Shown here one piece after another: positions 45,976-64,000 of a stretch of DNA of 64,000 nucleotides. The notes beneath the pieces were generated by a model. That model was not told where the DNA came from and did no database searches. It saw only the letters and a program-made list of their open reading frames with translations. Origin of the DNA: Lichenibacterium dinghuense (GTDB lineage: Bacteria > Pseudomonadota > Alphaproteobacteria > Rhizobiales > Beijerinckiaceae); assembly GCF_021730615.1 (NCBI RefSeq), contig NZ_JAJLMN010000001.1:868001-932000 (forward strand), read 5' to 3'. Position numbers and translations under genes: made by a program. Position 1 is the stretch's first letter. The number at the start of each line of letters is the position of its first letter.

Positions 45976-45999
45976 CAAGACGCCCGGAGGGAGCGACCC

Positions 46000-47115
46000 A
46001 TGACCCAAGCCAGCCCATCCCTGGACCGCTCCCGCCCCGCCGCGGCGGCGCCGGGCTTCGACATCGGACGCGTGCTGCTGGAAGGCCGCGCCTATTTCGC
46101 GCTTGTCGCGATCGTGGTCGTCTTCTCGGTCCTGTCCCCCTACTACCTGTCGGTGTCGAACCTCCTGACCATGTCGTCGCACGTGGCGCTGTTCGCCATC
46201 CTGGCGATCGGCATGCTGCTGGTGATCCTCAACGGCGGCATCGACCTGTCGATCGGCTCGACGCTGGGCCTGTCGGGCGTGGTGGCCGGCGCGCTGATGC
46301 AGGGCGTGCCCCTCGGCCCGCTCGGGGTTACGGCATATCCGCCCGTGTGGGTCGTCGCGGTGCTGTGCTGCCTCCTCGGCGCCGCCATCGGCCTCGTCAA
46401 CGGCGTGCTGATCGCCCGCTTCCGGGTGCCGGCCTTCGTCGCGACCCTCGGCGTGATGTACATGGTGCGCGGCGTCGCGCTGCTGATGACCAACGGCCTC
46501 ACCTACAACAACCTCGGCGGCCAGCCCGCCCTCGGCAACACGGGCTTTGACTGGCTCGGCTTCAACCGCATCGGCGGCGTGCCGATCGGCATCCTGGTGA
46601 TGGTGGTGATCGCGCTGATCGGCAGCCTGGTGCTGACCCGCACGCCCTTCGGGCGCTGGCTCTACGCCTCGGGCGGCAACGAGCGCGCGGCCGAGCTGTC
46701 GGGCGTGCCGGTGAAGGCCGTGCAGCTTTCCGTCTACATGATGTCGGGCGTCTGCGCCGCCGTCGCGGGGCTGATCCTGTCCTCGCAGCTCACCTCGGCG
46801 GGCCCCACCGCCGGCACCACCTACGAGCTCACCGCCATCGCGGCCGTCGTCATCGGCGGCGCGGCGCTGACGGGCGGGCGCGGCAACGTGCGCGGCACGC
46901 TGCTCGGCGCCTTCGTGATCGGCTTCCTGTCGGACGGCCTCGTGATCATCGGCATCTCGTCCTACTGGCAGACGGTGTTCACCGGCGCCGTGATCGTGCT
47001 CGCCGTGCTGCTCAACGCCGTCCAGTACCGCGGCCGCGCCAAGGCCCCCGCCAAGCCGGCGGGCGGCACGCCGGCCCCGACGGGCCACACCCCTTCCCCG
47101 CGACCCGCGGCGTGA
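46000..47115 (+). CDS. Sugar/polyol ABC transporter permease (RbsC type)
   Basis: 371 residues with about ten transmembrane helices: AYFALVAIVVVFSVLSPYYL, FAILAIGMLLVILNGGIDLSIGSTLGLSG, VARFRVPAFVATLGVMY-like IARFRVPAFVATLG, and the EAA-like region RWLYASGGNERAAELSGVPVKAVQ. AAVVIGGAALTGGRGNVRGTLLGAFVIG is the conserved C-terminal half. It follows the ATPase by 24 bases. Confidence 0.93.
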   Translation: MTQASPSLDRSRPAAAAPGFDIGRVLLEGRAYFALVAIVVVFSVLSPYYLSVSNLLTMSSHVALFAILAIGMLLVILNGGIDLSIGSTLGLSGVVAGALMQGVPLGPLGVTAYPPVWVVAVLCCLLGAAIGLVNGVLIARFRVPAFVATLGVMYMVRGVALLMTNGLTYNNLGGQPALGNTGFDWLGFNRIGGVPIGILVMVVIALIGSLVLTRTPFGRWLYASGGNERAAELSGVPVKAVQLSVYMMSGVCAAVAGLILSSQLTSAGPTAGTTYELTAIAAVVIGGAALTGGRGNVRGTLLGAFVIGFLSDGLVIIGISSYWQTVFTGAVIVLAVLLNAVQYRGRAKAPAKPAGGTPAPTGHTPSPRPAA

Positions 47116-47119
47116 GGCG

Positions 47120-47140
47120 CCGCCGGGCCTGACCCGGCGG
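47120..47140 (+). promoter_or_regulatory. Intercistronic hairpin between permease and binding-protein genes
   Basis: CCGCCGGG (47120-47127) pairs perfectly with CCCGGCGG (47133-47140) around CCTGA. GGCCGC...GCGGCC further on (47147-47175) may form a second stem. Such hairpins between permease and binding-protein genes often slow 3' decay or partly stop transcription so that the binding protein is made in excess; that role is inferred. Confidence 0.5.
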
Positions 47141-47199
47141 GGATCCGGCCGCCCGCGATCCGGGGTGCGGCCGCATATACAACCTGAAGGAGAGGAAAC

Positions 47200-48162
47200 A
47201 TGTCCATCAAGGCGAAGCTTCTGGCCGTCACGGCCCTCGCGGCGGCGCTGGCCGCCCCGGCCCTGACCGCGACGGCCGCCCAGGCGGCCGGCGGCCTGAT
47301 GACGATCATCGTCAACGACCCCGCGAACCCCTACTGGCTCACCGAGGGCAACGTCGCCGCGGCCGAGGCCAAGAAGCTCGGCTACGAGGCCAACGTCGGG
47401 GCCTCCAAGGGCGACACCAACACCGAATCGAACCTGATCGACACGGCCATCACCAACAAGTCGGTGGCGATCATCCTCGACCCCGCGAACGCGTCGGGCT
47501 CGGTCGGCGCCGTGAAGAAGGCCGTCGCGGCCGGCATCCCGGTGATCCTGGTCAACGCCGAGATCAACCAGGAGGGCCTCGCCAAGGCGCAGCTCGTGTC
47601 CAACAACGCGCAGGGCGCGGCGCTCGGCGCGCAGCAGTTCGTCAAGGACGTCGGCCAGAAGGGCGACTACGTCGAGCTGCTCGGCTCCCCCTCGGACAAC
47701 AACGCCGCCACCCGCTCCAACGGCTTCGCGACGGTGCTCGACCAGTACGACAACCTCCACAAGGTCGGCCAGCAGGTCGGCAACTGGGACCGCACCCAGG
47801 GCCACGACAAGATGCAGAACCTGCTGCAGGCCCACCCCGGCATCATCGGCGTGATCTCGGGCAACGACGAGATGGCGCTCGGCGCCATCGCGGCGCTGAA
47901 GGAGGCCGGCAAGCTGTCGTCGGTCAAGGTCGGCGGCTTCGACGGCTCGCCGGACGCGGTCGCGGCCATCAAGGCGGGCGAGCTGCAATATTCGGTGCTG
48001 CAGCCCGTGGCGACCTTCGCCGCCAAGGCGGTGGACGAGGCCGACAGCTTCATCAAGACGGGCAAGACCGGCGCCCCCCAGGAGAAGCAACTGTTCGACT
48101 GCGTGCTCATCACCAAGGCCAACGCGGACAAGATGACGGCGCCCTTCACGATGGCGAAGTGA
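47200..48162 (+). CDS. Periplasmic sugar/polyol-binding protein (RbsB type)
   Basis: 320 residues, with AAGGAGAGG before ATG 47200. Signal peptide (LLAVTALAAALAAPALTATAAQAA). The mature part has the type I periplasmic-binding fold: MTIIVNDPANPYWLTEGNVAAAEA, TAITNKSVAIILDPANASG, GIPVILVNAEINQEG, IIGVISGNDEMALGAIAALKEAG and VGGFDGSPDAVAAIKAGEL. It probably captures the polyol used by the eryAB-type enzymes. The usual operon position is last, as here. Confidence 0.93.
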   Translation: MSIKAKLLAVTALAAALAAPALTATAAQAAGGLMTIIVNDPANPYWLTEGNVAAAEAKKLGYEANVGASKGDTNTESNLIDTAITNKSVAIILDPANASGSVGAVKKAVAAGIPVILVNAEINQEGLAKAQLVSNNAQGAALGAQQFVKDVGQKGDYVELLGSPSDNNAATRSNGFATVLDQYDNLHKVGQQVGNWDRTQGHDKMQNLLQAHPGIIGVISGNDEMALGAIAALKEAGKLSSVKVGGFDGSPDAVAAIKAGELQYSVLQPVATFAAKAVDEADSFIKTGKTGAPQEKQLFDCVLITKANADKMTAPFTMAK

Positions 48163-50236: not shown

Positions 50237-53200
50237 ATGACCGGGCGGCTCACGCGCAACCACACCGCGACCGCCTCCTGGACCGCCAAGGACGAGCGCC
50301 GGAGGAGGGTCTGCCTGCGTGCCGAGGCGGGCGCGCGGCTCGCCGACCTGGGACGGCCTTGGCTGCGGCTCGGAGCGGACGCGGCAGACGGAGACCGGAC
50401 CTCGATCGTCCTGCCGTCCACCGCGGTCGAGAGCCCCCTCAGGATGGTGGAGGCGCAGGGCGGGGCTTCGCTGCGCGCCTATATCGCGGGCCGGCCGACG
50501 GTCGACCTCGCCGCCACCATCGGCATCGCTCGCGCGATCACGCGCGAACTGGCGGCGGTCCACGCCTGCCACGTGCTCCATGGCAACGTGTCGGTCGACA
50601 CGATCCTGGTCGATCCCGCGACGGCGAAGGTCGCGATCGTCGCCTTCGACGACGCGGTCAAGCTCGCGCCGGGCGAAAGCCTCGACCTTTCCGCGGCGGC
50701 TCGGATCCCGGCTCCGCTCGCGCAGACGCCGGAGATGGCGGGACGCTCGGCCCAGCCCGTCGACCACCGGACCGACCTCTACGCCCTGGGCAGCGTCCTC
50801 TATCACCTGTTCACGGGACGCCCCCCGTTCGAGGTCGAGGACCCGGTCGCCCTGGCCCACGCCCACCTCGCGAAATGGCCGCCTCCGCCGCACGAGGTCG
50901 CGGACCTGCCGTCGGTCGTCTCCGCCATCGTCATGGCGAACCTGAAGAAGCAGCCCGACGAACGGTATCAGCGCGCCCTCAACCTGATCGTCGACCTGGA
51001 CATCTGCCTGCAGGCCCTCGAGGCCGGCCCGGAGATCGCCGCGTTCCCCCTTCGCCTTCGGCCCCTGCAGGCGGCCCTGGCGCACGGCGACTTCCTGTAC
51101 GGGCGGGACACGCAGCACGTCCGGCTCGACAAAGCGCTGGCGGCCGCCAAGGCGGGCCGGCCACAGACCGTGATCGTCGCCGGTGCCGCGGGGGCGGGGA
51201 AATCCGTCCTCTGCCGGCGCTTCGCCCACGGGGTCGTGGCCGCGGGTGGCCTGACCGGGCTGGGCAAGTTCGAGCAGTTCGGCGCGAGCTCGCCCTATCT
51301 CGGCCTCGTCCGGTGCTTCGAGGACCTCATCGGCGGCCTGATGCGCGGGCGCGAGGAGACCGCGGAACGGGTCGCCCGTGAGATCAGCTCCAAGCTGCGC
51401 GGCAACCTCGGGGCCCTCGCCGCCCTGCTCCCCAGCCTGAGGGCGCTGGTGGGGGCGGCCGTCCCCGACGAGCCGCTGGTCGGCACCGGGGCCCGCGACC
51501 GGCTCGCGCAATGTTTCCTCGGCCTGCTCGACGCCGTGGCCTCCCCGGAGCGCCCGGTCGTGCTCTTCCTCGACGACCTCCAATGGGCCGACAGCGCGTC
51601 GCTCGACATCCTCGGCAAGATCTCCGCCTCTCTGGCCGGAAGCGTCGTCCTCGTCGGGACCAGCAGGACGGGGCGGGACGAGGCGGCGGGGCTGGACGGC
51701 GCCGTCGCGGCGCTGGCGGTGCGGGACGAGCCGCCGGTCCGGCTGGACCTGATCCCGCTCAACCGGAGCGACGTCGAGGACCTCATGCTCGGGGTCTTCG
51801 GGCCGCGCCGCTTCCTGGTCGAGGCCGCGGCGGTGGTCTACGCCAAGACGCTCGGCAGCCCGCTGTTCGTGTGCCAATTCCTCCAGGGCCTCGACGAGGA
51901 TCTCGTGCTCGATCCGTCCGGGGTCTGGGACTTCGCCGCGGTCGCGGCCGTCCCCGGCGCCGAGGACGTGGTCGCCTTTCTGTCCGCCCGCATCAGCTCG
52001 CTCGACGACCTGTCGCGCGCCATCCTGGCCACCGCGTCCTGCTTCGGCATGTCGTTCCACCAGGCGGGCCTGCGAGCCCTGATCGACGTGCCCGACCTCG
52101 TGCTGACCGATCGCCTGGCCGCGCTGGTCGTCCAGGGCTTCTTCCTGCGGTTCCACGGCGGCTTCCTGTTCGCGCACGACCGCGTGCGGGAGGCGGCGTA
52201 CCGATCGGTCGCCGACCGCGACGCGGTCCACCGCCGCATCGGGCAGGCCCTTCTGGCCGAGCACGCGGACGGCGGGCTGGCCGGCGCCGCCTTCGCGATC
52301 GCCCGCCACCTCCGGGCGGCGGGCGACCTGTCGGCGGTGCCGGGGCTCGAAGAGCGCTACATCGAGGTCGCGTTTCTCGCCGCGCAGCGCGCCCACGGGG
52401 CCGCGGCCTTCGATCTGGCGCGGTCCTACGCCGAAACGGTGCTGGCCGACGCGGGCCGGTGGGCGAGCCACTACGACACGATGGCGCTGGCCGTGATCCT
52501 GAGGGCCGACAGCATCGCGTCCGGCCAGGACCGGGACCACCGCGACTTCGACCGCGAATGCGACGTAGCCGGCGCCCGCCTGCGCACCGACGAGCACAGG
52601 CTCCGCCTGGCCCTCGTCCGGGTGGTGTCGCTCCACGCCCGCTCGCGCTGCCTGGAAGCGCTGGAGGTGGGCCTCGACGCCCTCAGGATCGTCGGCATCG
52701 ACCTCCCGGCCGACCCGCAGGCGCAGGCCGCGGCGCTCAGCGACGAGTTCATCGCCTTCCGGCGCGCCATGGCGGGCCGGCCGCCCGGCGACCTCGTCGC
52801 CCTTCCGGCGCTCGGCGACCCCTGCGTCGCGATCGCCATGCAGATCCTGTTCCGGTTGGCGCCGAACGCGAACGAGACCATGAAGCCGGAGCTGTTCGCG
52901 CTCATGGCCCTGCGCAACGTCAACCTCATGCTCGTCCATGGCCGGGACGGCTTCGCGTCCGGGATCCTCATGACGCTGGCCCTCGCCCTCGCCCGGCATC
53001 CCGAGGAGGCCGGGCTCGCCGAAAGCTTCGCGCAGGCCGCGATGGACCTCGACGGTCGGGAGGGGGGCCGCACCCCCGCCAGCGTGAGCTTCATCTACAC
53101 CTACTTCTTCAGCCACTGGCGGCATCCCCTGGAGATGTCGCTGCCGTCGAACCTCGACGGCATGCAGGCCGGCTTCGCCATGGGCGACCACCAGTTCGGC

Positions 53201-56164
53201 TCGTTCCACGCGGCCGCCTACGTGATCCACCTCGCCGGCGTCGGCGCCCCGCTCCGGGAGGTCGTCCGGGCCGGCCGCGACCACGACCACCTGATCGCGG
53301 GGCGCACCCGCGTTTCCCTGTTCCACTGCCGGCTCGAAGTCGCCTTCGCGGAAGCGCTGCTCGGCATGACGGCTTCGCCGACCCGCCTGCGCAAGGAGGG
53401 CCCGACGACGCTCGACGACGTGCTCCGCGAGGCGGGAAACCTCGACCACGGGGAGCGCGGCTTCTTCCTCGCCCGCCACCTCCAGCTCGCCTACCTCTTC
53501 GGCGCGCTCGACGACGCGGCCGCGCTGGCGGCCGCACTGACCGCATTGATGCCGGCGGTCGCCGGCAACTTCGTCGAGGCCGACATCGTGACCTTCGCCC
53601 TCCTGACCGCGCTTGCGGCCGGGCGGCGTCCCGAGTCCTTCGACGGCGACCTCGCCCGCCTCGAAGGCTGGGCCCGGCGCAACCCGAGCAACTTCGCCTG
53701 CCGGCACGCCCTGGTGGCGGCCGAAATCGCCGCTCGCGAGGGCCGGCTGGGGGACGCCATCGGCCACTACGCCCGGGCCGTCGGGGACGCCCGGGCGCGC
53801 AACTTCCCGCACTTCGCCGCCCTGGCGAGCGAGAGGGCGGGACGGTTCTTCCTCGGCCTTGGCGACGCGGTGGCGGGGCACGCCCACCTGGCCGAGGCGC
53901 TCCGGTCCTATGCCGGATGGGGCGCCGACGCCAAGACGGCGGCGCTGATCGCCGAGTTCGCCCCCATGCGGGACGGGCCGCCGGCGGGTCGGGCCGGGTT
54001 GGACCTCGGCCGCCCGGCCCTGGAGTTCACGGCCGTCCTCGACGCCGCGCGGGCGATCTCGGCCGAGATCGACATCGACCGGCTCCTCCAGAAGCTGATG
54101 ACCAGCGTCCAGGAGGTGTCTGGCGCCACCTACGGCGCCCTCGTCCTGAACCAGGACGGCCAGCCCTTCGTCGAGATCGTGCTGAGGCACGGCGAGGGCG
54201 TGTCGGTGTCCGACGCGGCGGCCCAGCCGCTCGACCGGAGCCGGCTCGTGCCGCGCAGCGTGATCGCCCGCGTCGAGCGCGACCGCGCGACCCTGGTCCT
54301 GAAGAATGCCGGATCGTCCGAGTTCGCCCGTGACCCGCACATCCGCGACAACGCGGTCGTGTCGGTGCTCTGCGCCCCCCTGGTCGTGCACGGCAAGCTC
54401 GACGGCTTCGTCTACGTCGAGAACAACCTCACCGTCGCGGCCTTCGATCCCCGCTCGGCCCAGGCCATCCAGATGCTCGCCGCCCAGGCCGCCATCGCGC
54501 TCAACAACGCGCGCCTGTTCGGCCTCCTGGACCGCGCGCGCGCCGACCTGTCGGACGCCAACCGCGACCTCGAACACAAGATCGCCGCACGCACGGCCGA
54601 ACTCGCCAACGCCCACGGCCTCGCCCTGGAGAAGGCGGACGAGGCCGACCGCGCGCGGGACGCGGAAAGGCGCGCCAACGACGCCAAGTCGCGCCTCCTC
54701 AGTGTCGTCAGCCACGAGATCAGGACGCCGATGAACGGCATCCTCGGCATGCTGCAACTGCTCGACAGGTCGCGCCTCGAGCCGCGGGAGCACCGCCAGG
54801 TCGACCTCGCCCAGCGGTCCGGCTTCGCGCTCGTGAAGCTCATCGACGGCATCCTCGACCACTGCAAGCTCGAACTCGGCACCGTCGAGGCGGTCGACGA
54901 GACCTTCGACCTCGACGGACTCATCGAAGGCTCGGTCGAGATCTTCCGACCCTCGGCCGAAGCCAAAGGCCTCGACCTCGCCGTGAGCCGCGATGCGCCG
55001 GCCGACGTCCTGCTGCGCGGCGACGCGCAGGGCATCGGCCGGGTCGTCGCGAACCTCGTCGGCAATGCCGTGAAGTTCACCGACCAGGGACGCGTGGCGG
55101 TGACGCTGGATCTCCAGGGGGAGGGAACGGACGTCTCGCTCTTCCTCAGGGTCGAGGACACGGGCATCGGCATCGCCGAGGCCATGCGGGAGCGCATCTT
55201 CGAGGAGTTCGTGCAGGCCGACGCTTCGGTGGCGAGGCGCTACGGCGGCACGGGCCTCGGCCTCGCCATCGCCCGCCAGATCCTCGCCCTGTCGGGCGGC
55301 ACCATCGCGGTCGAGAGCCGGCCGGGCCTCGGCAGCACCTTCGAGGTCCGGGTGCCCGTGGCCCTCGCGCATCGCGGCCCGGAGCCGGCCCCCGCGATCG
55401 AGGCCGGGCGGCCCCTCACCGTCCTCGTCGTCGACGACGACGAGATCAACCGCGAGGTCGCGTCGGGCCTGCTGCGGCGGCTCGGCCACGCGGTGACCTG
55501 CGCAGACGGCTGGTCCGCCGCCGTCGCGGCGGTCCGGACGGAAACCTTCGACGCGGTCGCCCTGGACCTCCACATGCCGGAGGTCGACGGCATCGAGACG
55601 GCGCAGCGCATCCGGCGCGCCCTCGGCGCCCGGCCCTGCCCGTCGATGGTGCTGCTGACGGCCGACGCCACCGAGGCGGTCCGGCAGAGGAGCATCGACG
55701 CAGGCTTCGACGGCGTGCTCCACAAACCGCTGCGCTTCGATGCGCTCGCGGCGGCGCTCGCGGCCCTGCCGCGGGCAGGAGGGGCCGCGCATCCCCCTGC
55801 GCCGCCGCTGCCGGACGTCGACGCCGCGCCCTTCGCCGACCGCTGCGCGCTGCTGGGCATCCCGCAGACCGCGCGGCTCATCCGCCTCTACGACCGTCGG
55901 TCGCGCCAGACCGTCGAGGCGATCCGCCTCGCCGCGGCGGGGCGCGATCGCTCGGCCCTGTCGAAGCTCGCCCACAGGCTGCGCGGGGCGTCGGGCTCGC
56001 TCGACCTGCGCGAGATGGAGGAGCGGGCCAGGGTGTTGGAGACCGCGGCCCCGGCCGACGATGCGGCCCTGGACGCGGCCGTCGCGGCGCTGCGGCCGGC
56101 GCGGCGGCGCGCCGTCGTGGCCGCCCTCCGCGCCGTGCGGGCCCTCAAGGCGCGCGAAGGATGA
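50237..56164 (+). CDS. Giant hybrid histidine kinase (pseudokinase-AAA-GAF-HK-REC-Hpt)
   Basis: 1975 residues, no transmembrane segment, so probably cytosolic. Domains in order: a Ser/Thr-kinase-like region (about 60-260; [38 protein letters not shown]) in which HRD reads HGN, so likely inactive; an AAA ATPase with Walker A GAAGAGKS near 316 and Walker B [10 protein letters not shown] near 442; a long TPR-like helical region (about 550-1240); GAF (about 1262-1420); HisKA with His about 1493 ([10 protein letters not shown]); HATPase ([21 protein letters not shown]); receiver (about 1728-1845, [11 protein letters not shown]); Hpt with His about 1913 ([11 protein letters not shown]). Converges with the response regulator at 56205. 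Confidence 0.93.
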   Translation: [1975 protein letters not shown]

Positions 56165-56204
56165 CGCTTCCGCGCCGGGCGGCGCCTCTGCGCCTCGGTC
56201 TCCC

Positions 56205-56993
56205 TCAGCGGTCGCGGTCGATGGCGAGGCCGAGCCGGTACCCGAACCCGTTCACCGTCACGATCGGCGCTTCCGGTCCCGGCGCGCTCTTCAGCTTGCG
56301 GCGCAGCCGGGCCACGAGGGCGTCCACCGTGCGCTCGCCCACCTCGGTCTCGCGGTTGCTCACCACCTCCACGAGGTAGTCCCGGCTGAGCGGGCGCCCG
56401 TCGGCCTGGACCAGGGCCGCGATCAGGTCGAACTCGCCCCGCGTGAGCCGGATCGGTTCGCCCTCGAGCGTGGTCAGTTCGCGGCGGGTGTTGTCGATGA
56501 GCCAATTCCCGAAGGTCACGACGGAATCGTCCCGCGCGGCCCTGCGATCCATCTGCCGGCGGCGGAGCAGGGCGCGCGTCCGCGCGAGCAGCTCGCGCAG
56601 GTTGACGGGCTTCGACACGTAATCGTCCCCCGCCAGCTCCAGGGCCATGATGCGGTCCGTCTCGCTGCTGTTCTGCGTGACGAAGATGATGCCGACGGCG
56701 CTCGACGCCCGGATGGTGCGCGCGAGGTCCAGGCCGTCGCAGTCGGGCAGCTGGATGTCGATGAAGACGACGTCCGCGGGCCACCGCTTGAGCAGGCGGA
56801 GGGCGGCCTCCCCGGTCTCGGCCTCCGACACCTCGAACGATTGATCGGACATGTAGGTCCCGATCATGGCGCGCGTGACGTCGTCGTCTTCGACCACCAT
56901 CAGGCGCGGGCGGCTCGAGATCTTCTTCAGCCGAATGGTCGGTGCCGCGAACTCGCTCACAAGTTGATAAGTCCCGGCCGGCCGGTCGACCAT
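56205..56993 (-). CDS. OmpR/TorR-like response regulator
   Basis: 262 residues from ATG 56993 (GGATGAG just upstream; ATG 57005 also in frame). The receiver begins RLMVVEDDDVTRAMIGTYM, with the phospho-accepting Asp in VVFIDIQLPDCDG and the Lys in YVSKPVN. The winged helix (ELTTLEGEPIRLTRGEFDLIAALVQ, GRPLSRDYLVEVV, RTVDALVARLRRKL, IVTVNGFGYRLG) is OmpR/PhoB type. The neighbouring 1975-residue kinase, with its receiver and Hpt, is the likely phosphate source. Ten-base repeats like TorR boxes lie in the divergent promoter at 57017-57047. Confidence 0.92.
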   Translation of the reverse strand: MVDRPAGTYQLVSEFAAPTIRLKKISSRPRLMVVEDDDVTRAMIGTYMSDQSFEVSEAETGEAALRLLKRWPADVVFIDIQLPDCDGLDLARTIRASSAVGIIFVTQNSSETDRIMALELAGDDYVSKPVNLRELLARTRALLRRRQMDRRAARDDSVVTFGNWLIDNTRRELTTLEGEPIRLTRGEFDLIAALVQADGRPLSRDYLVEVVSNRETEVGERTVDALVARLRRKLKSAPGPEAPIVTVNGFGYRLGLAIDRDR

Positions 56994-57016
56994 ATGCTCA
57001 TCCATGATGATGACAG

Positions 57017-57047
57017 CGGTTCACATCGGTTTGCATCCGGTTCACGG
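57017..57047. promoter_or_regulatory. Three ten-base direct repeats, putative response-regulator binding sites
   Basis: CGGTTCACAT (57017-57026), CGGTTTGCAT (57027-57036) and CGGTTCACGG (57038-57047) are spaced by one helical turn. A fourth, CGGTTCATCC, is at 57108-57117. OmpR-family regulators bind such tandem decamers, and the sequence recalls the TorR box consensus CTGTTCATAT. A TACTTA -10-like hexamer is 19 bases after the third repeat, so the array would overlap the -35 of the amine oxidase promoter. It is also 24 bases before the regulator's own start. Confidence 0.6.
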
Positions 57048-57066
57048 ATGGTCGGACGTCACATGC

Positions 57067-57072
57067 TACTTA
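57067..57072 (+). promoter_or_regulatory. Possible -10 element of the amine oxidase promoter
   Basis: TACTTA lies where a -10 would be if the operator array overlaps the -35 (17-base spacing puts the -35 at 57044-57049, ACGGAT, a poor match as expected for an activated promoter). It stands in a short AT-richer stretch. Weak evidence on its own. Confidence 0.3.
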
Positions 57073-57147
57073 GCCTGTGCGGAGCCGCTCCGGCCACTGC
57101 TTTTTGACGGTTCATCCCGCCTGTCCGTCGAAGCTCGCGAGTCTTCC

Positions 57148-58722
57148 ATGCTCGACTTGGCCTCGACCTATCCCCACGTGCCCGTCGCGGACATGCTGGC
57201 CCGGATCAGGCGGGACGACGAGGGCAGACCCCGCAAGCACGTCCTCGTCCTCGGCGCCGGCATGGCGGGCCTCGTCGCAGCCCGCGAATTGCAGGCCCTG
57301 GGCCACACCGTCAGGATCGTCGAAGGCAGCGACCGCATCGGCGGCCGCATCCTCACGCACCGCTTCGAGGACGGCAGCTACAATGAACTGGGCGCCATGC
57401 GCGTGCCCGCGTCGCACGACTACACCCGGCACTACATCGCCGCGGCGTCGCTGGACGACAAGCTGATCCCGTTCGTCAACAGCGTCCCCGAGAACTTCCT
57501 CGACCTGCACGGCCGGGTTGTGCGCGCGGACCACGGGCAGGAGGCCATCTACCCGCTCTACGGCCTGCCGGGATCGCCGACGGTGCCCGCGACCGCCTAT
57601 CCGCAGCCGAACGGCGGCGCCATCTTCGCCTGGCTGCTCGGCAACGTCATCGCGACCCTCACGAAGTTCGAGCAGGACAGCCTGTTCAAGGGGGAGCTGA
57701 CGACGGACCGCCTGCGCGCGCTGGACGGCCTGTCGCTCGGCGCCTTCCTGGACGGGATGGTGCCGTCCGAGGTCAAGCGGCTGGTCGGCGCCTACACGAG
57801 CCTCGCGGTCTGGTTCGACAAGGCCGTCACGATGTTCATCCGGGACCAGATCGTCGAGACGGGCAACGGCCTGCAGACCCTGCTCGGCGGCATGGACCAG
57901 CTTCCGCACGCCATCGCGGGCAAGCTGCTGGCGCCCGGCACCGTGGAGCACCGCGCCGAGGTCACGAGGATCGCCGTCAGGCCCGGCGAGCGCGTCGAAG
58001 TTGACCTCCAGACCCCGCAGGGACACCGGCGGGAGGTCGCGGATTTCGTGCTCTGCACCCTGCCGTTCGGCGTCATGCGCCAGCTCGCGCTCGAAGGACT
58101 GAGCTACGAGAAGACCTACGCCATCGGCGAGATGACCTACGCGGCCTCCACGAAGGTCATCCTCGGCTTCAAGCACCGATTCTGGGAAGCACACTACGGC
58201 ATCTACGGCGGATCCTCGGTGTCGGACGGCATCCAGCGCCAGACCTACTATCCGATGGATCACATCGGTTCGCCCGACCGCGTGGAGGATGGGGCGCCCG
58301 TCAGCGTCCACGGCCGCGCGCCCACGCCGAAGCCCGTCGCGCCGCACGACGGGGCCGACCCGTCCCGCCCGGGTGCGCTCCTCGGGGCCTATTGCTGGGG
58401 CGCCGACGCCCTCCGGCTCGGGGCCCTGTCGCCCGAGCGCCGCGCCCACGCGGTGCGGCTCGGCATCTCCCGCTTTCACCCGGAGGTCATGGACGACGCC
58501 GGCTACACCGGCCACGCGTCGATCTGTTGGGCCACGAACAAGTGGTCGGTCGGAGCCTTCGCGTTCCTTCGGCCCGGCCAGCTCGGAAGCCTCTGGGCCG
58601 CCGCCGGCAAGCCGGAGGGATGCCTGTTCTTCGCGGGCGAACACTGCTCCCTCGATCAGGCCTGGATCCAGGGCGCGCTCATCTCGTCGCTGCAGGCGGT
58701 CGACCAGATCGTCAAGGAGTAG
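57148..58722 (+). CDS. Flavin monoamine/L-amino-acid oxidase-family protein
   Basis: 524 residues from ATG 57148. The ADP-binding fold begins VLVLGAGMAGLVAARELQALGHTVRIVEGSDRIGGRI. RVPASHDYTRHYI lies in the substrate domain, and CLFFAGEHCSLDQAWIQGALISSLQAV is the C-terminal FAD-binding motif. The family oxidises amino acids or amines to imines with O2. In-frame starts further left (57004) would put the operator repeats inside the coding region and give an unlikely N-terminus. It is the first gene rightward of the response regulator, its likely activator. No export signal. Confidence 0.88.
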   Translation: MLDLASTYPHVPVADMLARIRRDDEGRPRKHVLVLGAGMAGLVAARELQALGHTVRIVEGSDRIGGRILTHRFEDGSYNELGAMRVPASHDYTRHYIAAASLDDKLIPFVNSVPENFLDLHGRVVRADHGQEAIYPLYGLPGSPTVPATAYPQPNGGAIFAWLLGNVIATLTKFEQDSLFKGELTTDRLRALDGLSLGAFLDGMVPSEVKRLVGAYTSLAVWFDKAVTMFIRDQIVETGNGLQTLLGGMDQLPHAIAGKLLAPGTVEHRAEVTRIAVRPGERVEVDLQTPQGHRREVADFVLCTLPFGVMRQLALEGLSYEKTYAIGEMTYAASTKVILGFKHRFWEAHYGIYGGSSVSDGIQRQTYYPMDHIGSPDRVEDGAPVSVHGRAPTPKPVAPHDGADPSRPGALLGAYCWGADALRLGALSPERRAHAVRLGISRFHPEVMDDAGYTGHASICWATNKWSVGAFAFLRPGQLGSLWAAAGKPEGCLFFAGEHCSLDQAWIQGALISSLQAVDQIVKE

Positions 58723-58914
58723 CGCTGACCAGCGGTCGGGACGGGTCCGGCGGCGGGACGCGGCTGGCGGCGCGGGAGGTGGGGGCGATCGATCCGCGTG
58801 GAACGGCTGTCCGAACCCTCCCGGCTCACACGCGGTCGGGCGAACTCACCTGACCGCGAACTACGATTGGGTTGGAGGACGGGGGCCGTCATGGACATGC
58901 TTTGGGAGGCGGCG

Positions 58915-60513
58915 ATGAGTGAGGACACCGTCGTCGAATGTGCCATCGTCGGCGCCGGCATGTCCGGCCTGTATTCCGCGTGGCGGCTCGCCTCGGCGCT
59001 GCCCGGTGGGGGGCAGGGCGTCCACGTCTTCGAGATGAGCGACAGGGTCGGCGGCCGCCTCGAAGCGATCCGGATGGCGGGGATGCCGCACGTGCCGGCC
59101 GAGCTCGGCGAGATGCGCATCCTGAAAACGCAGCCGATCGTCCGCAGGCTGGTCGACATGCTGGCGCTGCCGACCGTCGACGGCCCGGCGGGCGGCCAGG
59201 ACGACCACGTCTACCTCCGGGGGCGGCACTTCGCGGCGCGCGACTACGCCGACCCGTCGCTGGTCCCCTACGACCTGCGCGACGACGAAGAAGGGCTGTC
59301 CCCGTCGCAGCTCGTCGTCCGCGCCATCGAGGCCGTCGTCCCGGGCGCCTCCGTTCTGACCCCGCAGGCCCTCCGCGCCGCCTGCGAGGCCGCCACGCTG
59401 AACGGCTACCCGCTGCGCCAGCACGGCATCTGGCAGGTGCTCGGCAGCGCGCTCAGCATCGAGGCCTTCAACCTCGTCCTCGCCGGGGGCGGCTTCGACG
59501 CCCTGTCGGCGAACTGGAACGCCGCCGAGGCCGCCTGCCGGTTCATGGCCGAGCGGTCGAGGACGCCGAGCGCCGCCTCCGCGTCCCACCTGAGGGACGG
59601 CTGCGACGCGATCCCGCTCGCGCTGTGGGACCGCTTGGTCGAGAAGGGCGGACGGGTCCACCTGAAGCAGGAGCTGACGGCCTTCCGCCGCGGGCCCGAC
59701 GATTGCTACACCCTGACGTTCCGGAACGCCGACACCGGCCAGGATCGCGAGGTCACGGCCCGGAACCTGATCCTGGCCATGCCCAAGCGCTCGTTGCAGC
59801 GCCTGGCCGAGCGGGCGCCGGCCGGGCAGGGGACGGCCTCCTTCCTGAGCGGAGCCGGCGTCGGCGAGCTGATCGACAGCGTCGAGGGTCACGCGGTGCA
59901 CAGGCTCGCCCTCGCCTATCCCGAGCCCTGGTGGAACAGGTTCGGCCCGACCTCGGGCGACCTCGTGACGGATCTGCCCCTGCGGCGGATGCGCTACCTC
60001 GCGACCGAGGGCGACCAGCCGGGGGCCGATCCGCGCAACCGGAACGCCCTGCTCGTCGCCTCCTACGCGGACGGCCCGTCGGCCCGCTACTGGGACGGCG
60101 TCCGGGCCAGCGGGCCGCGCTTCCTCGGCCTGCCCAACGACTTCGCGCCGCACCATCGCGCGCCGCACGCCGAGGCCCACGCGGTCAGCACGCTGATGGT
60201 CGACGACGTGCACCGGCAGGTCGCCGCGGCCCACGGCCTCGACGACCTGCCCCGCGCCTACGACGCCGCCTTCCGCGACTGGGGCGACGACCCCTTCGGC
60301 GGCGGCTGGCATTCCTGGAAGATCGGCGTGAACGCCGGCGACGTGATGCGCCGGATCATCCGCCCGGTCGACGGCGAGGCGGTCTTCATCTGCGGCGAAG
60401 CCTATTCGACCCACCAGGGCTGGGTCGAGGGCGCCCTGCAGACCGCCGAGACGATGCTGACGCAGCATTTCGGCCTCGCACCGTTGCTCCAGCCGATGGC
60501 GTGGGCGTCGTGA
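58915..60513 (+). CDS. FAD-dependent amine oxidase-like oxidoreductase
   Basis: 532 residues from ATG 58915, set by GGGAGG six bases before (58904-58909). The FAD-binding motif is ECAIVGAGMSGLYSAWRLA, then VFEMSDRVGGRLEAIRM and AELGEMRI. The C-terminus has VFICGEAYSTHQGWVEGALQTAETML, as in amine oxidases. It is distinct from the oxidase at 57148 rather than a recent copy. It follows that gene by 192 bases and overlaps the next by GTGA, so it may act on the same pathway intermediate or an adjacent one. Confidence 0.87.
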   Translation: MSEDTVVECAIVGAGMSGLYSAWRLASALPGGGQGVHVFEMSDRVGGRLEAIRMAGMPHVPAELGEMRILKTQPIVRRLVDMLALPTVDGPAGGQDDHVYLRGRHFAARDYADPSLVPYDLRDDEEGLSPSQLVVRAIEAVVPGASVLTPQALRAACEAATLNGYPLRQHGIWQVLGSALSIEAFNLVLAGGGFDALSANWNAAEAACRFMAERSRTPSAASASHLRDGCDAIPLALWDRLVEKGGRVHLKQELTAFRRGPDDCYTLTFRNADTGQDREVTARNLILAMPKRSLQRLAERAPAGQGTASFLSGAGVGELIDSVEGHAVHRLALAYPEPWWNRFGPTSGDLVTDLPLRRMRYLATEGDQPGADPRNRNALLVASYADGPSARYWDGVRASGPRFLGLPNDFAPHHRAPHAEAHAVSTLMVDDVHRQVAAAHGLDDLPRAYDAAFRDWGDDPFGGGWHSWKIGVNAGDVMRRIIRPVDGEAVFICGEAYSTHQGWVEGALQTAETMLTQHFGLAPLLQPMAWAS

Positions 60514-62345
60514 GTGCGGCGTCCGTCCCGGCCGTGCCGGAATCGGCGCATCCGTCCAAGGTGGCGGACCCGTCGAAGGCGGCCGCGCGCGCCGCGGGGC
60601 CCACGGTCTCCGACATCCTGCTCGACTACCTCGCCCTCGAAGGCGTCACGCACCTGTTCGGGATACCGGGCGGGGGCGTCGCGAACCTCCTCAACGCGCT
60701 GAGGCTGCGCGAGGCGGAGTTCAGCTACGTCATCTGCAAGCAGGAGACCGGCGCCGCATACATGGCAGACGGCTTCCATCGCGTCACCGGCCGGCTCGGC
60801 GTGGTCCTCGTGACCACGGGGCCGGGAGCGCTCAACGCCCTCACGGGCGCCATGAACGCGCAGGCGGACCGTTCCGCCGTGCTGACGATCACGGGGGAGG
60901 TCGCGGAACGGTATTTCGGCAAGGGCTACCTGCAGGCGGGCGCGGACGGCGACCTCGACGTCAACGCGATCTACAAGAACGCCGTCCGCTATTCGGCGCT
61001 GGTGGCCTCGCCCGACAGCTTCGCCACCCTGTTCACGGAAACCCTGAGGGTGTCGCTGTCGACGCCCTTCCAGGCCACCCACATCTCGCTGCCGGTGGAC
61101 GTCTCCAACATGACGCCCACGGACCCGATCGTGATGCCGGCCAGCCCCGAGCGGTACCGGTCCAAGCCCCGCTACGGCGACCGCCCGAAGACCGCGGAGG
61201 CGCTCGACCTGCTGCTGCGGGCGAAGCGGCCCCTGATCATGCTGGGCAACGGCAACCGCTTCGCCCTGCGGGGGGAGAGGCTCGGCCGCCTGCAGGGGCT
61301 CGTCGACACCTTCGCCATCCCGGTCATGACCACGCCGGACGGCAAGGCCCTGTTCCCCGAAGGCCACGCCATGGCGCTCCGCAACTACGGCATGGCGGGC
61401 TGCCCCTGGCCGACGAACTACATGAAGGCGTCCCAGGGCGGCCCGGCCTACGACGCGCTGCTGGTCGTCGGCTCCTCGCTCGGCGAACTCGCCACCAACA
61501 TGTGGGATACGCTGCTGGTCCCGAAGGGCCCCTTCATGCAGGTCGACGCCGACGTCGCGGTCGTGGGCCGGAACTTCCCGGTCGACCTCGGCATCGTGGC
61601 CGACGCCGCGCAGTTCTTCGACGACCTGTTCGAGGCGGCCGAGGGGCGGACGCCCGACGCCGAGGCGGTGGCGGAGCGGCGCGCCGCCGTCGCCCACCTC
61701 AAACGGCGCGTCCCCGAGTGGGACGATCCGGCGAAGCGGGACTCCGACGCCGTCCCGGTGCTGCCCCAGGCGGCGATGCGGGTGGTCAACGAGCTCCTCC
61801 CGAGCGGCAGCCACGTCTTCGTGGACTGCGCCAACTGCGTGGGGTGGTCGCTCAACGACCTCGCCTTCGACCCGCCGACGCAGATGCACCTGTCGCTCGA
61901 CATGGGCCCGCTCGGCTTCGGCGTGTGCGGCGTCATCGGCGGCAAGTTCGGCGCGCCCGACCGCGTCTGCCTCGCCATCGTGGGCGACGGGGCCTTCCTG
62001 ATGCACGGGACCGAGGTATCCACCGCGGCGCGCTACGGGATCGGGGCGATCTGGATCGTGCTCGACAACAACGATCTCGCCATGGTCAGCCAGGGCAACG
62101 CCCACTTCTTCCCCGAGCCCAAGCAGCCGTCGTGGACCGACTATTACGGCCTCGGCCGGCCCGACATCGCCGCGGTCGCGGCGGGGCTCGGCGCCGACAG
62201 CTACCGCGTCAACAGCGCGTCCGGCCTGAGGGACGCGCTGCACAAGGCGATCAAGCGTTCGGATCAGTCGAGGCGGCCGCAGGTGATCGCGCTCGAGATC
62301 GACCGGTCCGAGGTGCCCCCGTACTACGTGCCCGTGCCGACCTGA
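60510..62345 (+). CDS. ThDP-dependent enzyme, acetolactate synthase-like
   Basis: 611 residues from GTG 60510, overlapping the upstream stop (GTGA). N-terminal Pyr domain: ILLDYLALEGVTHLFGIPGGGVANLLNAL and the catalytic Glu in ICKQETGAAYMADGFHRVTG (about Glu79). The central domain is degenerate. The PP domain has the ThDP/Mg motif VGDGAFLMHG...LDNND (GDG near 492, NN near 520). It groups with the acetolactate synthase/benzoylformate decarboxylase superfamily. No regulatory subunit gene follows, so branched-chain synthesis is unlikely; decarboxylation or acyloin coupling of a keto acid fits the neighbouring oxidases. Confidence 0.88.
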   Translation: MSAASVPAVPESAHPSKVADPSKAAARAAGPTVSDILLDYLALEGVTHLFGIPGGGVANLLNALRLREAEFSYVICKQETGAAYMADGFHRVTGRLGVVLVTTGPGALNALTGAMNAQADRSAVLTITGEVAERYFGKGYLQAGADGDLDVNAIYKNAVRYSALVASPDSFATLFTETLRVSLSTPFQATHISLPVDVSNMTPTDPIVMPASPERYRSKPRYGDRPKTAEALDLLLRAKRPLIMLGNGNRFALRGERLGRLQGLVDTFAIPVMTTPDGKALFPEGHAMALRNYGMAGCPWPTNYMKASQGGPAYDALLVVGSSLGELATNMWDTLLVPKGPFMQVDADVAVVGRNFPVDLGIVADAAQFFDDLFEAAEGRTPDAEAVAERRAAVAHLKRRVPEWDDPAKRDSDAVPVLPQAAMRVVNELLPSGSHVFVDCANCVGWSLNDLAFDPPTQMHLSLDMGPLGFGVCGVIGGKFGAPDRVCLAIVGDGAFLMHGTEVSTAARYGIGAIWIVLDNNDLAMVSQGNAHFFPEPKQPSWTDYYGLGRPDIAAVAAGLGADSYRVNSASGLRDALHKAIKRSDQSRRPQVIALEIDRSEVPPYYVPVPT

Positions 62346-62369
62346 TATCGCCGCGACGGGCGGACGAGC

Positions 62370-63404
62370 GTGTCGGACGGGGTGGAGACAGCGACGATGG
62401 GACCCGCGATCACCGGCCTGGGATTCAGCGTCCCGGGCAAGCTGCGCACCAACGACGACCCCGTCTTCGCCTGGATCAAGCAGAACCACCCGGCCTATGC
62501 CGACAGCTTCAAGGGGTTCCGGGACCGGCGCATCCTCGCGGAGGGGAAGGCGCTGTCGGCCCTGATGAGCCGGGCGGCCCTCGCCGCCCTGGCGGACGCC
62601 GGGGTCGCCGCCGACGAGGTCGGCCTGATCCTCGGGCTGGGGTCGGTGGGCCCGCTGACCTCGCCCAACGTCCTCGCCGAGGTGCACCGGGACGTCGGCC
62701 TCCCGCGCGGCTGCCAGATCATCCCGCTCGAGACCGAGCACACCGTCTTCAACGACGCGCTCGTCGTCGCGGACGCCATGCTGCGCTCGCGCCCGGGGCT
62801 GCGCAACGCGCTCGTGGTCTGCGGCTGCGACTGGTCGCGCCACGTCAGCTATCACGAGGCGACCTGCATCGGCGCGGCGGACGGCGCCGGTGCCGCCGTG
62901 GTGTCGCTGACGGACGACCCCTCGTGCTTCCGCGTCGTGGACAGCGCCGTGGAGACCGACACGAGCTTCGTGGGTGCGATGCGCATGGCGGCGCGGGCCA
63001 CGGGGATCGCCGAACCGGCGGCGCCCTACGACCCGACGCTCTACACGACGCCCCTCATGTACTACGGCGAGGAGGCCCAGAAGGCCTTTCAAACCTTCGG
63101 GGTCGGCGTCCCGCCGCGGCTCATCGCCGAACTGCTCGCGCGCAACGCGCTGTCCGCCGCGGAGATCTGCCTCATCGCCCACCAGGCGAGTTCGGTGCTG
63201 ACGGACGCTTGGCTGTCCGCGGTCGGGCCCGGGCAGTTCCTGACCACGATCGAGAGCTACGCCAACATGACGATCGCCTCGGTGCCGGTGACGCTCGCCT
63301 CGCGGTACGGGGAGATCGAGACGTCCCGCCTGGTCCTCCTCACGCTCGGCATGCAGCAGCAGGCGTCGGCCGTGCTGCTCGCGCGAGATCCTCTGCCGTC
63401 GTGA
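62370..63404 (+). CDS. KAS III-fold protein with Cys-to-His change
   Basis: 344 residues, 24 bases after the ThDP enzyme. It has the thiolase fold of 3-oxoacyl-ACP synthase III: DRRILAEGK, a domain repeat and the C-terminal catalytic His in LIAHQASSVL (His271) and Asn in SYANMTIASVPVTL (Asn299). Aligned without gaps from GCQIIPLE to the FabH segment around its active Cys, the Cys position is His124 (ETEHTVFNDAL). Normal acyl-Cys chemistry is therefore not expected. It may catalyse decarboxylation, condensation with a free substrate or acyl transfer. Last gene of the set. Confidence 0.82.
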   Translation: MSDGVETATMGPAITGLGFSVPGKLRTNDDPVFAWIKQNHPAYADSFKGFRDRRILAEGKALSALMSRAALAALADAGVAADEVGLILGLGSVGPLTSPNVLAEVHRDVGLPRGCQIIPLETEHTVFNDALVVADAMLRSRPGLRNALVVCGCDWSRHVSYHEATCIGAADGAGAAVVSLTDDPSCFRVVDSAVETDTSFVGAMRMAARATGIAEPAAPYDPTLYTTPLMYYGEEAQKAFQTFGVGVPPRLIAELLARNALSAAEICLIAHQASSVLTDAWLSAVGPGQFLTTIESYANMTIASVPVTLASRYGEIETSRLVLLTLGMQQQASAVLLARDPLPS

Positions 63405-63408
63405 GCCG

Positions 63409-63789
63409 TCACGCGGCCGGGCGCCGGGCCCAGTGGTCGAAGGCGAGCCTCTGCCGTTCCGCGACGAAGGCCTCGGCGGCGGGACCCGACCAGGGCCCGG
63501 CATAGCCCAGCCGTTCCGGGCGCCCCCCGACCCACCATCCCTGGCCCGGCAGGCCGTCGGCCTTGCGCACGACGAGCACGGCCAGCTCCGGCTCCCCTCG
63601 GGCCCGGGCGGCATCGTCGACGGCGTCCAGGGTCTTGCAGACGGCCCGCATCTTGGGGCGGCTGAAGCGGTGTCCGAGCGCGTCGAGCAGCTCGGAATAG
63701 GTCATCGCCCGCCCTCCGCGCGCCGAGGCGATCAGCACGGCGCGGACGTGGGCGACGTCGGACAGAGGCACGGTCGCGAGATCGTCCAT
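63409..63789 (-). CDS. Hypothetical alphaproteobacterial protein
   Basis: 126 residues from ATG 63789. The first half looks like a small winged helix (DVAHVRAVLIASARGGRAMTYSELLDALGHRFSRPKMRAVCKTLDAVD); the second (ELAVLVVRKADGLPGQGWWVG) is strand-rich and ends in a basic tail. I know no named family. It ends 5 bases from the convergent KAS III-like gene. Confidence 0.7.
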   Translation of the reverse strand: MDDLATVPLSDVAHVRAVLIASARGGRAMTYSELLDALGHRFSRPKMRAVCKTLDAVDDAARARGEPELAVLVVRKADGLPGQGWWVGGRPERLGYAGPWSGPAAEAFVAERQRLAFDHWARRPAA

Positions 63790-64000
63790 CGGCGCTCCTT
63801 CTCCCCGGCGCCTCCCGGACGGGCCCGGAGGCGGCCGCCATCCCGCGCCGCACGGCCCGTCGACAACGCCTCCGGCGGGGCCACGGTGCCGATGGCTGCG
63901 TCGCTTCCCGGCATCGGCGACCCGCGGGACGGCGGCCGGACCTTGCGCGGAAGCGCCGTTGCGGTCACGACACCGGGGAGCAACACGAGCGGGAGCCCTC
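63790..64000. other. Right-end stretch with no supported gene
   Basis: 211 bases upstream of the hypothetical gene. Short frames here lack ribosome-binding sites and protein-like composition. Presumably its promoter region plus the edge of a gene beyond the window; nothing specific seen. Confidence 0.4.

What the first reader, a model, noticed from the sequence alone, without database searches (positions are those of the whole stretch)
57148..63404. Uncharacterised four-gene metabolic cluster: two amine oxidases, ThDP enzyme and KAS III-like protein
Two distinct FAD amine oxidases, an acetolactate-synthase-like ThDP enzyme without a regulatory subunit, and an odd KAS III-fold protein lie in one direction with coupled junctions (GTGA overlap, 24-base gap). 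The set suggests oxidation of an amino acid to a keto acid, ThDP-dependent decarboxylation or acyloin coupling, then a condensation or acyl step. No known pathway with this exact set comes to mind. It has its own two-component system next door.
Basis: partly seen in the sequence, partly recalled or inferred. Interest (0 to 1): 0.75.

Follow-up and report, generated by a model that had tools for sequence, protein, structure and literature searches.

The report
Regulator-linked amino-acid-to-acyloin gene cassette
Three enzyme genes that probably turn amino acids into an unusual small molecule are found together in very unrelated bacteria, each time beside a giant signalling protein, which suggests an undescribed small-molecule pathway that may be a signalling system.

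Summary
They form a conserved cassette, not a chance run. Its core is three genes: amino-acid oxidase AO2, an acetolactate-synthase-like ThDP enzyme and a KAS III-like protein. The trio recurs in Rhizobium jaguaris, Flammeovirga kamogawensis (Bacteroidota) and six species of one unnamed genus, at 31-49% identity and with differing flanks. AO1 was found only here and in Flammeovirga.

All nine KAS proteins lack the catalytic cysteine (Phe or His instead) but keep His and Asn. And in all nine loci a giant AAA_16/helical-repeat regulator lies at the cassette, with differing outputs: histidine kinase-receiver-HPt here, SpoIIE phosphatase in Flammeovirga, cyclase-like elsewhere. The window's regulator is closer to generic kinases than to the other linked ones, so the class seems recruited more than once.

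ThDP plus KAS III-like logic is known from carbazoles and furanolides, so "no known pathway" is only partly right. Best reading: amino acid to keto acid to alpha-hydroxy-beta-keto acid, finished by the Cys-less KAS, under a dedicated regulator. Substrates and product are unknown; a signal role is inference.

The parts
50237..56164 (+). Giant regulator, 1975 aa: kinase-like domain, AAA_16 ATPase, helical-repeat region (about 790-1250), GAF, HisKA/HATPase, receiver, HPt
   Evidence: Pfam; AAA_16 giants lie at the cassette in 9 of 9 loci
56205..57005 (-). OmpR-type response regulator, divergent from AO1; likely phosphorelay partner (inference)
   Evidence: Response_reg and Trans_reg_C
57017..57045 (+). 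Three tandem CGGTT repeats (57017, 57027, 57038) in the regulator/AO1 gap; possible response-regulator site
   Evidence: Only match of the pattern in the window and in the 6.1-Mb genome, reversed control 0; found after looking, so suggestive only
57148..58722 (+). AO1, FAD amine oxidase of L-amino-acid-oxidase type; optional member
   Evidence: Amino_oxidase 195.8 bits; nearest solved chains are LAAOs; 42% to Flammeovirga
58915..60513 (+). AO2, FAD L-amino-acid-oxidase-like protein; core member
   Evidence: Amino_oxidase 94.9 bits; nearest solved chains 8jhe and L-Lys oxidase relatives; in 9 of 9 loci
60510..62345 (+). ThDP-dependent carboligase, GTG start; core member
   Evidence: TPP_enzyme N, M and C; nearest solved chains BbmA and CsmA; in 9 of 9 loci
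62370..63404 (+). KAS III-like protein without catalytic Cys (His124 there), His271 and Asn299 kept; start GTG 62370 or ATG 62397; core member
   Evidence: in 9 of 9 loci

Best explanation
A regulated small-molecule cassette. AO2 (with AO1 where present) oxidises L-amino acids to alpha-keto acids. [quoted passage not shown] The KAS III-like protein, without an acyl-carrying cysteine but with the His/Asn pair that KAS III uses for decarboxylation, acts on that unstable acid, most likely decarboxylating it under stereocontrol to an acyloin. A dedicated intracellular AAA_16/helical-repeat protein controls the genes or responds to the product; here through histidine kinase, receiver and HPt to the OmpR-type regulator at the repeat site before AO1. 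Shown: co-conservation of the genes, loss of the Cys, presence of the regulators. Inferred: every chemical step, the ligand and the direction of regulation.
For: Trio together in 9 loci from at least three distant lineages. ThDP: BbmA 297 bits and CsmA 202 bits against 143 for the first acetohydroxyacid synthase; [quoted passage not shown] Catalytic-type Glu and GDG motifs in 9 of 9. Both oxidases have the GxMR motif of LAAOs and LAAOs as nearest solved chains. KAS: Cys column C in 28 of 28 FabH letters but H or F in 9 of 9 here; His and Asn kept 9 of 9. LAAO + NzsH works in vitro and gives an unstable acid (PMC9822442). Regulator: AAA_16 giants are few (11 matches above 50 bits in seven genomes, one at each cassette); in Flammeovirga it follows AO2 and KAS with gaps of 4 and 3 bases.
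Against: No activity, substrate or product is known. The ThDP product decarboxylates readily by itself, so a decarboxylase would be needed only for control. Rare: 2 of 385 class and 2 of 398 phylum genomes, 0 of 5 other genus members. Gene order differs between the window and the seven similar loci. The window's helical region matches 195 plasmid records (8 over at least 80% of the query), and the window regulator is closer to generic kinases than to the other linked ones. The KAS model is only moderate (pLDDT 67). Six of the nine loci are of one genus.
Confidence: 0.5

Rival explanations
1. The KAS III-like protein is an acyltransferase that works without an acyl-enzyme: it passes an acyl group from acyl-CoA or acyl-ACP to the hydroxyl or enol of the ThDP product, giving an acylated acyloin or a lactone (CybF-, CqsB1- or xenocyloin-like product).
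For: CybF is described as doing decarboxylative O-acylation (PMC13288894, passage) and CqsB1 as joining the acid to 3-hydroxybutyryl-ACP (PMC7466098). Arg151 is kept as R or K in 9 of 9. L054 has an AMP-binding ligase gene beside its regulator.
Against: Cys lost in 9 of 9; Trp32 and Arg36 lost in 9 of 9, Arg249 replaced in 9 of 9 (K in six) (their CoA/ACP roles are recalled). No carrier protein or ligase was seen among the cassette genes. I could not compare with CybF, CqsB1 or XclB/C sequences.
Confidence: 0.3
2. A catabolic route: the oxidases deaminate amino acids, the ThDP enzyme decarboxylates keto acids to aldehydes or recycles them, the KAS-like protein is a lyase or inactive, and the regulator senses nutrients.
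For: Oxidases of this fold serve nutrition in many bacteria (recalled). Some loci sit beside transport and sugar or amine catabolism genes.
Against: The flanks differ between loci and no transporter or dehydrogenase travels with the trio. The ThDP enzyme scores best with carboligases, not decarboxylases. A KAS III fold has no evident place in such a route.
Confidence: 0.12
3. The regulator is linked only by position: giant AAA_16 proteins are shuffled often and sit at these loci without functional tie.
For: In 7 loci the regulator is convergent with KAS, not in its operon; six loci count as about one event; the window type is widespread without the trio.
Against: 9 of 9 loci; few such proteins per genome (150 first-look candidates scored each); at least two dissimilar types linked; same-direction 3-4-base gaps in Flammeovirga.
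Confidence: 0.15

Closest known systems
Carbazole pathways (CqsB7/CqsB3/CqsB1/CqsB2; NzsH/NzsJ/NzsI), PMC7466098, passages
   Same: Amino acid to keto acid, ThDP enzyme to alpha-hydroxy-beta-keto acid, then a KAS III-like enzyme
   Different: There an aminotransferase, not an oxidase, makes the keto acid; a carbazole synthase (CqsB2) and an ACP follow. Neither was seen in the cassettes. Here the KAS has no Cys and a giant regulator is linked
Furanolide pathway (CybE/CybF; homologs in Plesiocystis and Enhygromyxa), PMC8777810, PMC12395478, PMC13288894, passages
   Same: Neighbouring ThDP and KAS III-like genes acting in series
   Different: Cinnamoyl- or coumaroyl-CoA is the third block, with ammonia lyase and CoA ligase in the cyb cluster; none seen in the window set.
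BbmA and CsmA (PDB 8x3x, 8x3z)
   Same: Nearest solved relatives of the ThDP enzyme
   Different: Substrates of the window enzyme unknown; their gene neighbourhoods were not examined
Xenocyloin pathway of Xenorhabdus (XclA ThDP, XclB/C KAS III-like; recalled, only search listings seen)
   Same: ThDP acyloin formation plus KAS III-like proteins
   Different: Not compared; sequences not held
Alpha-hydroxyketone quorum sensing (CqsA/CqsS, LqsA/LqsS), PMC3376566, abstract
   Same: If the product is an acyloin, the same chemical class; synthesis genes beside a sensor
   Different: The synthases there are unrelated (PLP enzymes, recalled) and the sensors trans-membrane; here no clear membrane segment in the 7 of 9 regulators tested
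Hstk-type Ser/Thr-His kinases and sAC-type cyclases (names recalled)
   Same: Domain order of the window regulator and, loosely, of the Rhizobium regulator
   Different: Linked to a biosynthetic trio. The annotated relatives looked at lie beside other genes

Membership tests
[quoted passage not shown]
   motifs in 9 of 9
[quoted passage not shown]
   Nearest solved chains are BbmA and CsmA, but the best NCBIfam match is acetolactate synthase, far below its cut-off (248 against 538 bits); no tree with CybE or CqsB3
[quoted passage not shown]
   Needs assay
KAS III (FabH) and KAS III-like condensing enzymes | Thiolase fold of KAS III type | tested here: met
   (PqsD and FabH best, TM about 0.7, moderate model)
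KAS III (FabH) and KAS III-like condensing enzymes | Cys-His-Asn triad | tested here: not met
   Cys replaced by His (window) or Phe (8) in 9 of 9; His and Asn kept 9 of 9
L-amino-acid oxidase | Amino_oxidase fold family with GxMR arginine | tested here: met
L-amino-acid oxidase | Oxidises L-amino acids | not testable with these tools
   Needs assay; nearest solved chains are LAAOs
Carbazole cluster | Carbazole synthase CqsB2 and dedicated ACP beside the ThDP and KAS genes | tested here: not met
   None among the Pfam-scanned genes of the window set and its neighbours; no such family recurs beside the trio in 8 loci. Not searched genome-wide
Furanolide cluster | CoA ligase and ammonia lyase with CybE/CybF | tested here: not met
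   None in the window set; one AMP-binding ligase beside L054 only. Not searched genome-wide
Alpha-hydroxyketone quorum sensing (Cqs/Lqs) | CqsA/LqsA-type synthase and trans-membrane sensor | tested here: not met
   No such synthase among the cassette genes; no clear membrane segment in 7 of 9 regulators tested (hydropathy only)

The most novel reading that the evidence does not exclude
A horizontally moving, self-contained signalling system: LAAO, ThDP enzyme and a Cys-less KAS make an amino-acid-derived acyloin signal, read inside the cell by an AAA_16/helical-repeat receptor whose output module differs between lineages (phosphorelay, SpoIIE phosphatase, cyclase-like). The Cys-less KAS III would be a new beta-keto acid decarboxylase type.
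Probability: 0.2. Interest if true: 0.85.

Novelty: new variant of a known kind. Interest (0 to 1): 0.6.

Why it matters
If right, it adds an oxidase-fed branch to the ThDP/KAS III natural-product logic, a KAS III subfamily that has dropped its catalytic cysteine, and a case in which enzyme genes of distant phyla are kept beside the same class of large intracellular regulator. It would give a testable handle on what such AAA_16/helical-repeat proteins sense, which as far as I recall is unknown for most of them.

Tried and rejected
Rejected: (a) 'four independent genes': ThDP, AO2 and KAS recur together in 8 other loci. (b) A strict carbazole or furanolide cluster: the needed partners were not seen in the cassettes. 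(c) A helical region unique to this system: profile A6 matched only cassette-bearing genomes in two genera, but tblastn with the window sequence matched 195 plasmid records and one search puts the window regulator nearer to generic kinases; the claim was cut to 'same class of regulator, recruited more than once'. (d) Foreign base composition: 69-73% GC in the cassette, 70-74% in the flank.

Sigma-70 and terminator scan of 56100-63999 in the window: 0 found. KAS profile in 48 genomes of another class: 0 (no positive control there). Fold search of the helical region: one match below E 0.001, a repeat protein. Paper searches gave nothing direct. Oxidase relatives in Nostoc L058, Scytonema L059 and Aureibacter L060 have no annotated ThDP or KAS gene within 9 kb; Embleya L061 carries no annotation and was not read further.

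Literature: searches (open-licence PMC papers only) listed no paper on this gene set; most subscription papers are not held, so 'undescribed' rests on these alone. No paper was read whole: passages of PMC12395478, PMC13307353, PMC7466098, PMC8777810, PMC13288894 and PMC9822442; abstract and outline of PMC3376566; all else listings.

Mended since: gene order (AO2-ThDP-KAS in the window, ThDP-AO2-KAS in seven loci; my notebook entry does not make this difference clear), the regulator's distance (one gene from AO1), which relatives count as unlinked, and which flanking families recur.
Full report
OBSERVATION. The four genes exist as described: AO1 57148-58722, AO2 58915-60513, ThDP 60510-62345, KAS 62370-63404, all on the + strand. 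AO2 and ThDP overlap by GTGA. ThDP and KAS are 24 bases apart if KAS starts at GTG 62370, but 51 if it starts at ATG 62397, the start that aligns with the Flammeovirga protein. AO1 is separated from AO2 by 192 bases. Upstream lie a 1975-aa regulator (50237-56164; kinase-like, AAA_16, GAF, HisKA, HATPase, receiver, HPt) and a response regulator of OmpR type, divergent from AO1 (56205-57005, minus).

CONSERVATION. A single-protein search with KAS in 297 genomes of the order gave, besides the window itself (752 bits), matches of at most 80 bits, which is the level of ordinary FabH. None of the five other genomes of the genus has a match at E <= 1e-20. tblastn of the ThDP enzyme against 72,556 plasmid records gave 9 records at E <= 1e-40, two of them at 47-49% identity. 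These two carry the set: Flammeovirga kamogawensis plasmid p1 (ThDP 49%, AO1 42%, KAS 37%, AO2 33%) and a Rhizobium jaguaris plasmid (ThDP 47%, KAS 37%, AO2 32%). KAS against plasmids gave these two records only at E <= 1e-12. A KAS profile (A1) at E <= 1e-35 matched 2 of 385 genomes of the class (the window's and G551), the same 2 of 398 of the phylum, 2 of 295 of G551's family and 6 of 56 of its genus. The nine-row profile matched 0 of 48 genomes of another class. The six loci of that genus (L048, L049, L054-L057; unnamed, but the L048 stretch is nearest to Aliiroseovarius plasmids) have ThDP 48-49%, AO2 31-32% and KAS 36-39% identity to the window. So ThDP, AO2 and KAS lie together in 9 of 9 loci known here. 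Order: AO2-ThDP-KAS in the window, ThDP-AO2-KAS in Rhizobium and the six; in Flammeovirga two units, ThDP-AO1 on one strand and AO2-KAS-regulator on the other. AO1 was found in 2 of 9 loci (about 20 kb examined per locus). Beside the trio and regulator, the families of ORFs of at least 100 aa that recur are those shared by L048, L049 and L057, one shared by L048, L049 and L056, and one shared by L043 and L054. Twenty flanking proteins scanned belong to mixed families such as TRAP transport, sarcosine oxidase, arabinofuranosidase and glycosyltransferase.

REGULATOR. In 9 of 9 loci an AAA_16 protein of 1306-1975 aa lies at the cassette. In the window one gene (the response regulator) separates it from AO1. 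In Flammeovirga it follows AO2 and KAS in the same direction with gaps of 4 and 3 bases and ends in a SpoIIE phosphatase domain. In Rhizobium and the six it is convergent with KAS: a 4-base overlap in 5, gaps of 7 (L055) and 8 (L043) bases in 2. The Rhizobium protein has a cyclase domain above the Pfam cut-off (26.7 against 21.9 bits). Of three of the six scanned, L054 has a match below the cut-off (13.8 bits) and L048 and L055 have none; two aspartates in cyclase-like motifs are invariant in 7 of 7 (the motif reading is recalled), so I say cyclase-like only. AAA_16 matches above 50 bits number 11 in seven genomes, one at each cassette (G000 1, G551 1, G972 1, G1295 2, G1327 3, G1332 2, G1334 1; 150 first-look candidates scored per genome). 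A profile of the helical-repeat region (A6, built from the nine) matched at E <= 1e-5 in 6 of 56 genomes of that genus, exactly the 6 with KAS and once each at the cassette, and in 1 of 6 of the window's genus; because the genes are neighbours this is one linked gain or loss, not independent proof.

Against a cassette-specific receptor: the window's helical region also matched 195 plasmid records at E <= 1e-5, 8 of them over at least 80% of the query, of which only R. jaguaris is also in the KAS list among the records shown. On the AAA_16-plus-helical core the window regulator scores 192-287 bits with kinases of Azospirillum, Microvirga, Leptolyngbya, Nostoc, Mesorhizobium and Paraburkholderia, but 124 at best with the linked cyclase-like proteins and 102 with Flammeovirga (best pieces). 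Of these six, the annotated neighbourhoods of Microvirga, Mesorhizobium, Leptolyngbya and Azospirillum show no ThDP or KAS gene within about 7 kb; Paraburkholderia is unannotated; Nostoc has an AO2 relative nearby, beyond a transposase. The fair statement is that the same class of regulator has been recruited to the trio more than once, which argues for a functional link but not for a shared ligand pocket. The helical region models as an all-helical array (pLDDT 76.5); its weak structural matches include the quorum sensors NprR and Rap and MalT domain III (E 1.8e-3 and worse). None of the seven linked regulators tested has a clear membrane segment (highest hydropathy 1.92).

OPERATOR. The gap between the starts of the response regulator and AO1 holds CGGTT at 57017, 57027 and 57038, a spacing like that of OmpR/PhoB-type sites (recalled). 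The pattern occurs once in the window with 0 of 100 shuffles matching and once in the whole genome, with 0 for the reversed control; about 0.04 is expected genome-wide from base composition. I chose the pattern after the repeat search, so it is suggestive only. No sigma-70-type site was found in the window stretch. In five of the six loci of the other genus TTGACA precedes ThDP (by eye; not L054), and in L055 a CRP-like gene lies directly upstream.

CHEMISTRY. ThDP enzyme: nearest solved chains BbmA (297 bits) and CsmA (202), then an acetohydroxyacid synthase (143). [quoted passage not shown] that BpmA is BbmA is my reading. AO2: nearest solved chains are an ancestral LAAO (8jhe), 8jt7/8t8a and L-Lys-oxidase relatives. 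AO1: ancestral vertebrate LAAO. Both have the GxMR motif of LAAOs (AO1 by eye; AO2 9 of 9). KAS: a weak FabH/PqsD relative (68 bits at best), with that fold in a moderate model (pLDDT 67). Compared with 29 FabH sequences from the loci, the catalytic Cys column is C in 28 (one gap) and H (window) or F (eight) in the cassette proteins; His and Asn are kept in 9 of 9; Trp32 is W in 28 of 29 FabH and in none of the nine; Arg36 is R in 29 of 29 and F in 9 of 9; Arg249 is R in 29 of 29 and V, V, L or K (six) here; Arg151 is kept as R or K (E. coli numbering and roles recalled). In KAS III the His/Asn pair serves decarboxylation and the Cys acyl transfer (recalled), so a Cys-less KAS with intact His/Asn is predicted to decarboxylate a beta-keto acid, or to transfer without an acyl-enzyme. 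Its substrate would be the ThDP product. Parallels: carbazole CqsB3 then CqsB1 (PMC7466098), furanolide CybE then CybF (PMC8777810, PMC13288894, PMC12395478), and LAAO then NzsH in vitro with a product that loses CO2 easily (PMC9822442).

CONCLUSION. A genuine and, in the genomes sampled, rare cassette that crosses phyla: LAAO, ThDP carboligase and Cys-less KAS III-like protein with an AAA_16/helical-repeat regulator. The pathway logic is a new variant of the known ThDP/KAS III kind. The signalling reading is attractive but unproven.

Noticed in passing
L058 (Nostoc sp. UHCC 0926 plasmid pn3) 8989-19063: An AO2-related oxidase, an ISKra4 transposase, an AAA giant and a response regulator lie in a row; no ThDP or KAS gene is annotated within the stretch. 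Perhaps a broken or alternative arrangement, perhaps chance.
   Followed up: partly
L055 5851-6579: A CRP-like gene (cNMP-binding plus HTH) directly upstream of the ThDP gene, in a locus whose giant regulator is cyclase-like.
   Followed up: partly
L054 4094-5872: An AMP-binding ligase gene lies directly upstream of the regulator gene of this locus, on the other strand; it could supply an acyl-CoA.
   Followed up: no
window 44000-48162: A D-ribose-type sugar ABC transporter set, about 78% identical in DNA to Rhizobium and Paracoccus plasmid sets; not part of the cassette.
   Followed up: no
hits H60 and H62-H65: Plasmids of Staphylococcus aureus and S. pasteuri carry an AO2-related FAD oxidase at 28-30% identity; these records were not in the KAS list.
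   Followed up: no
window 63409-63789, minus strand: A 126-aa open frame ending 4 bases after KAS, convergent with it; no Pfam match.
   Followed up: no
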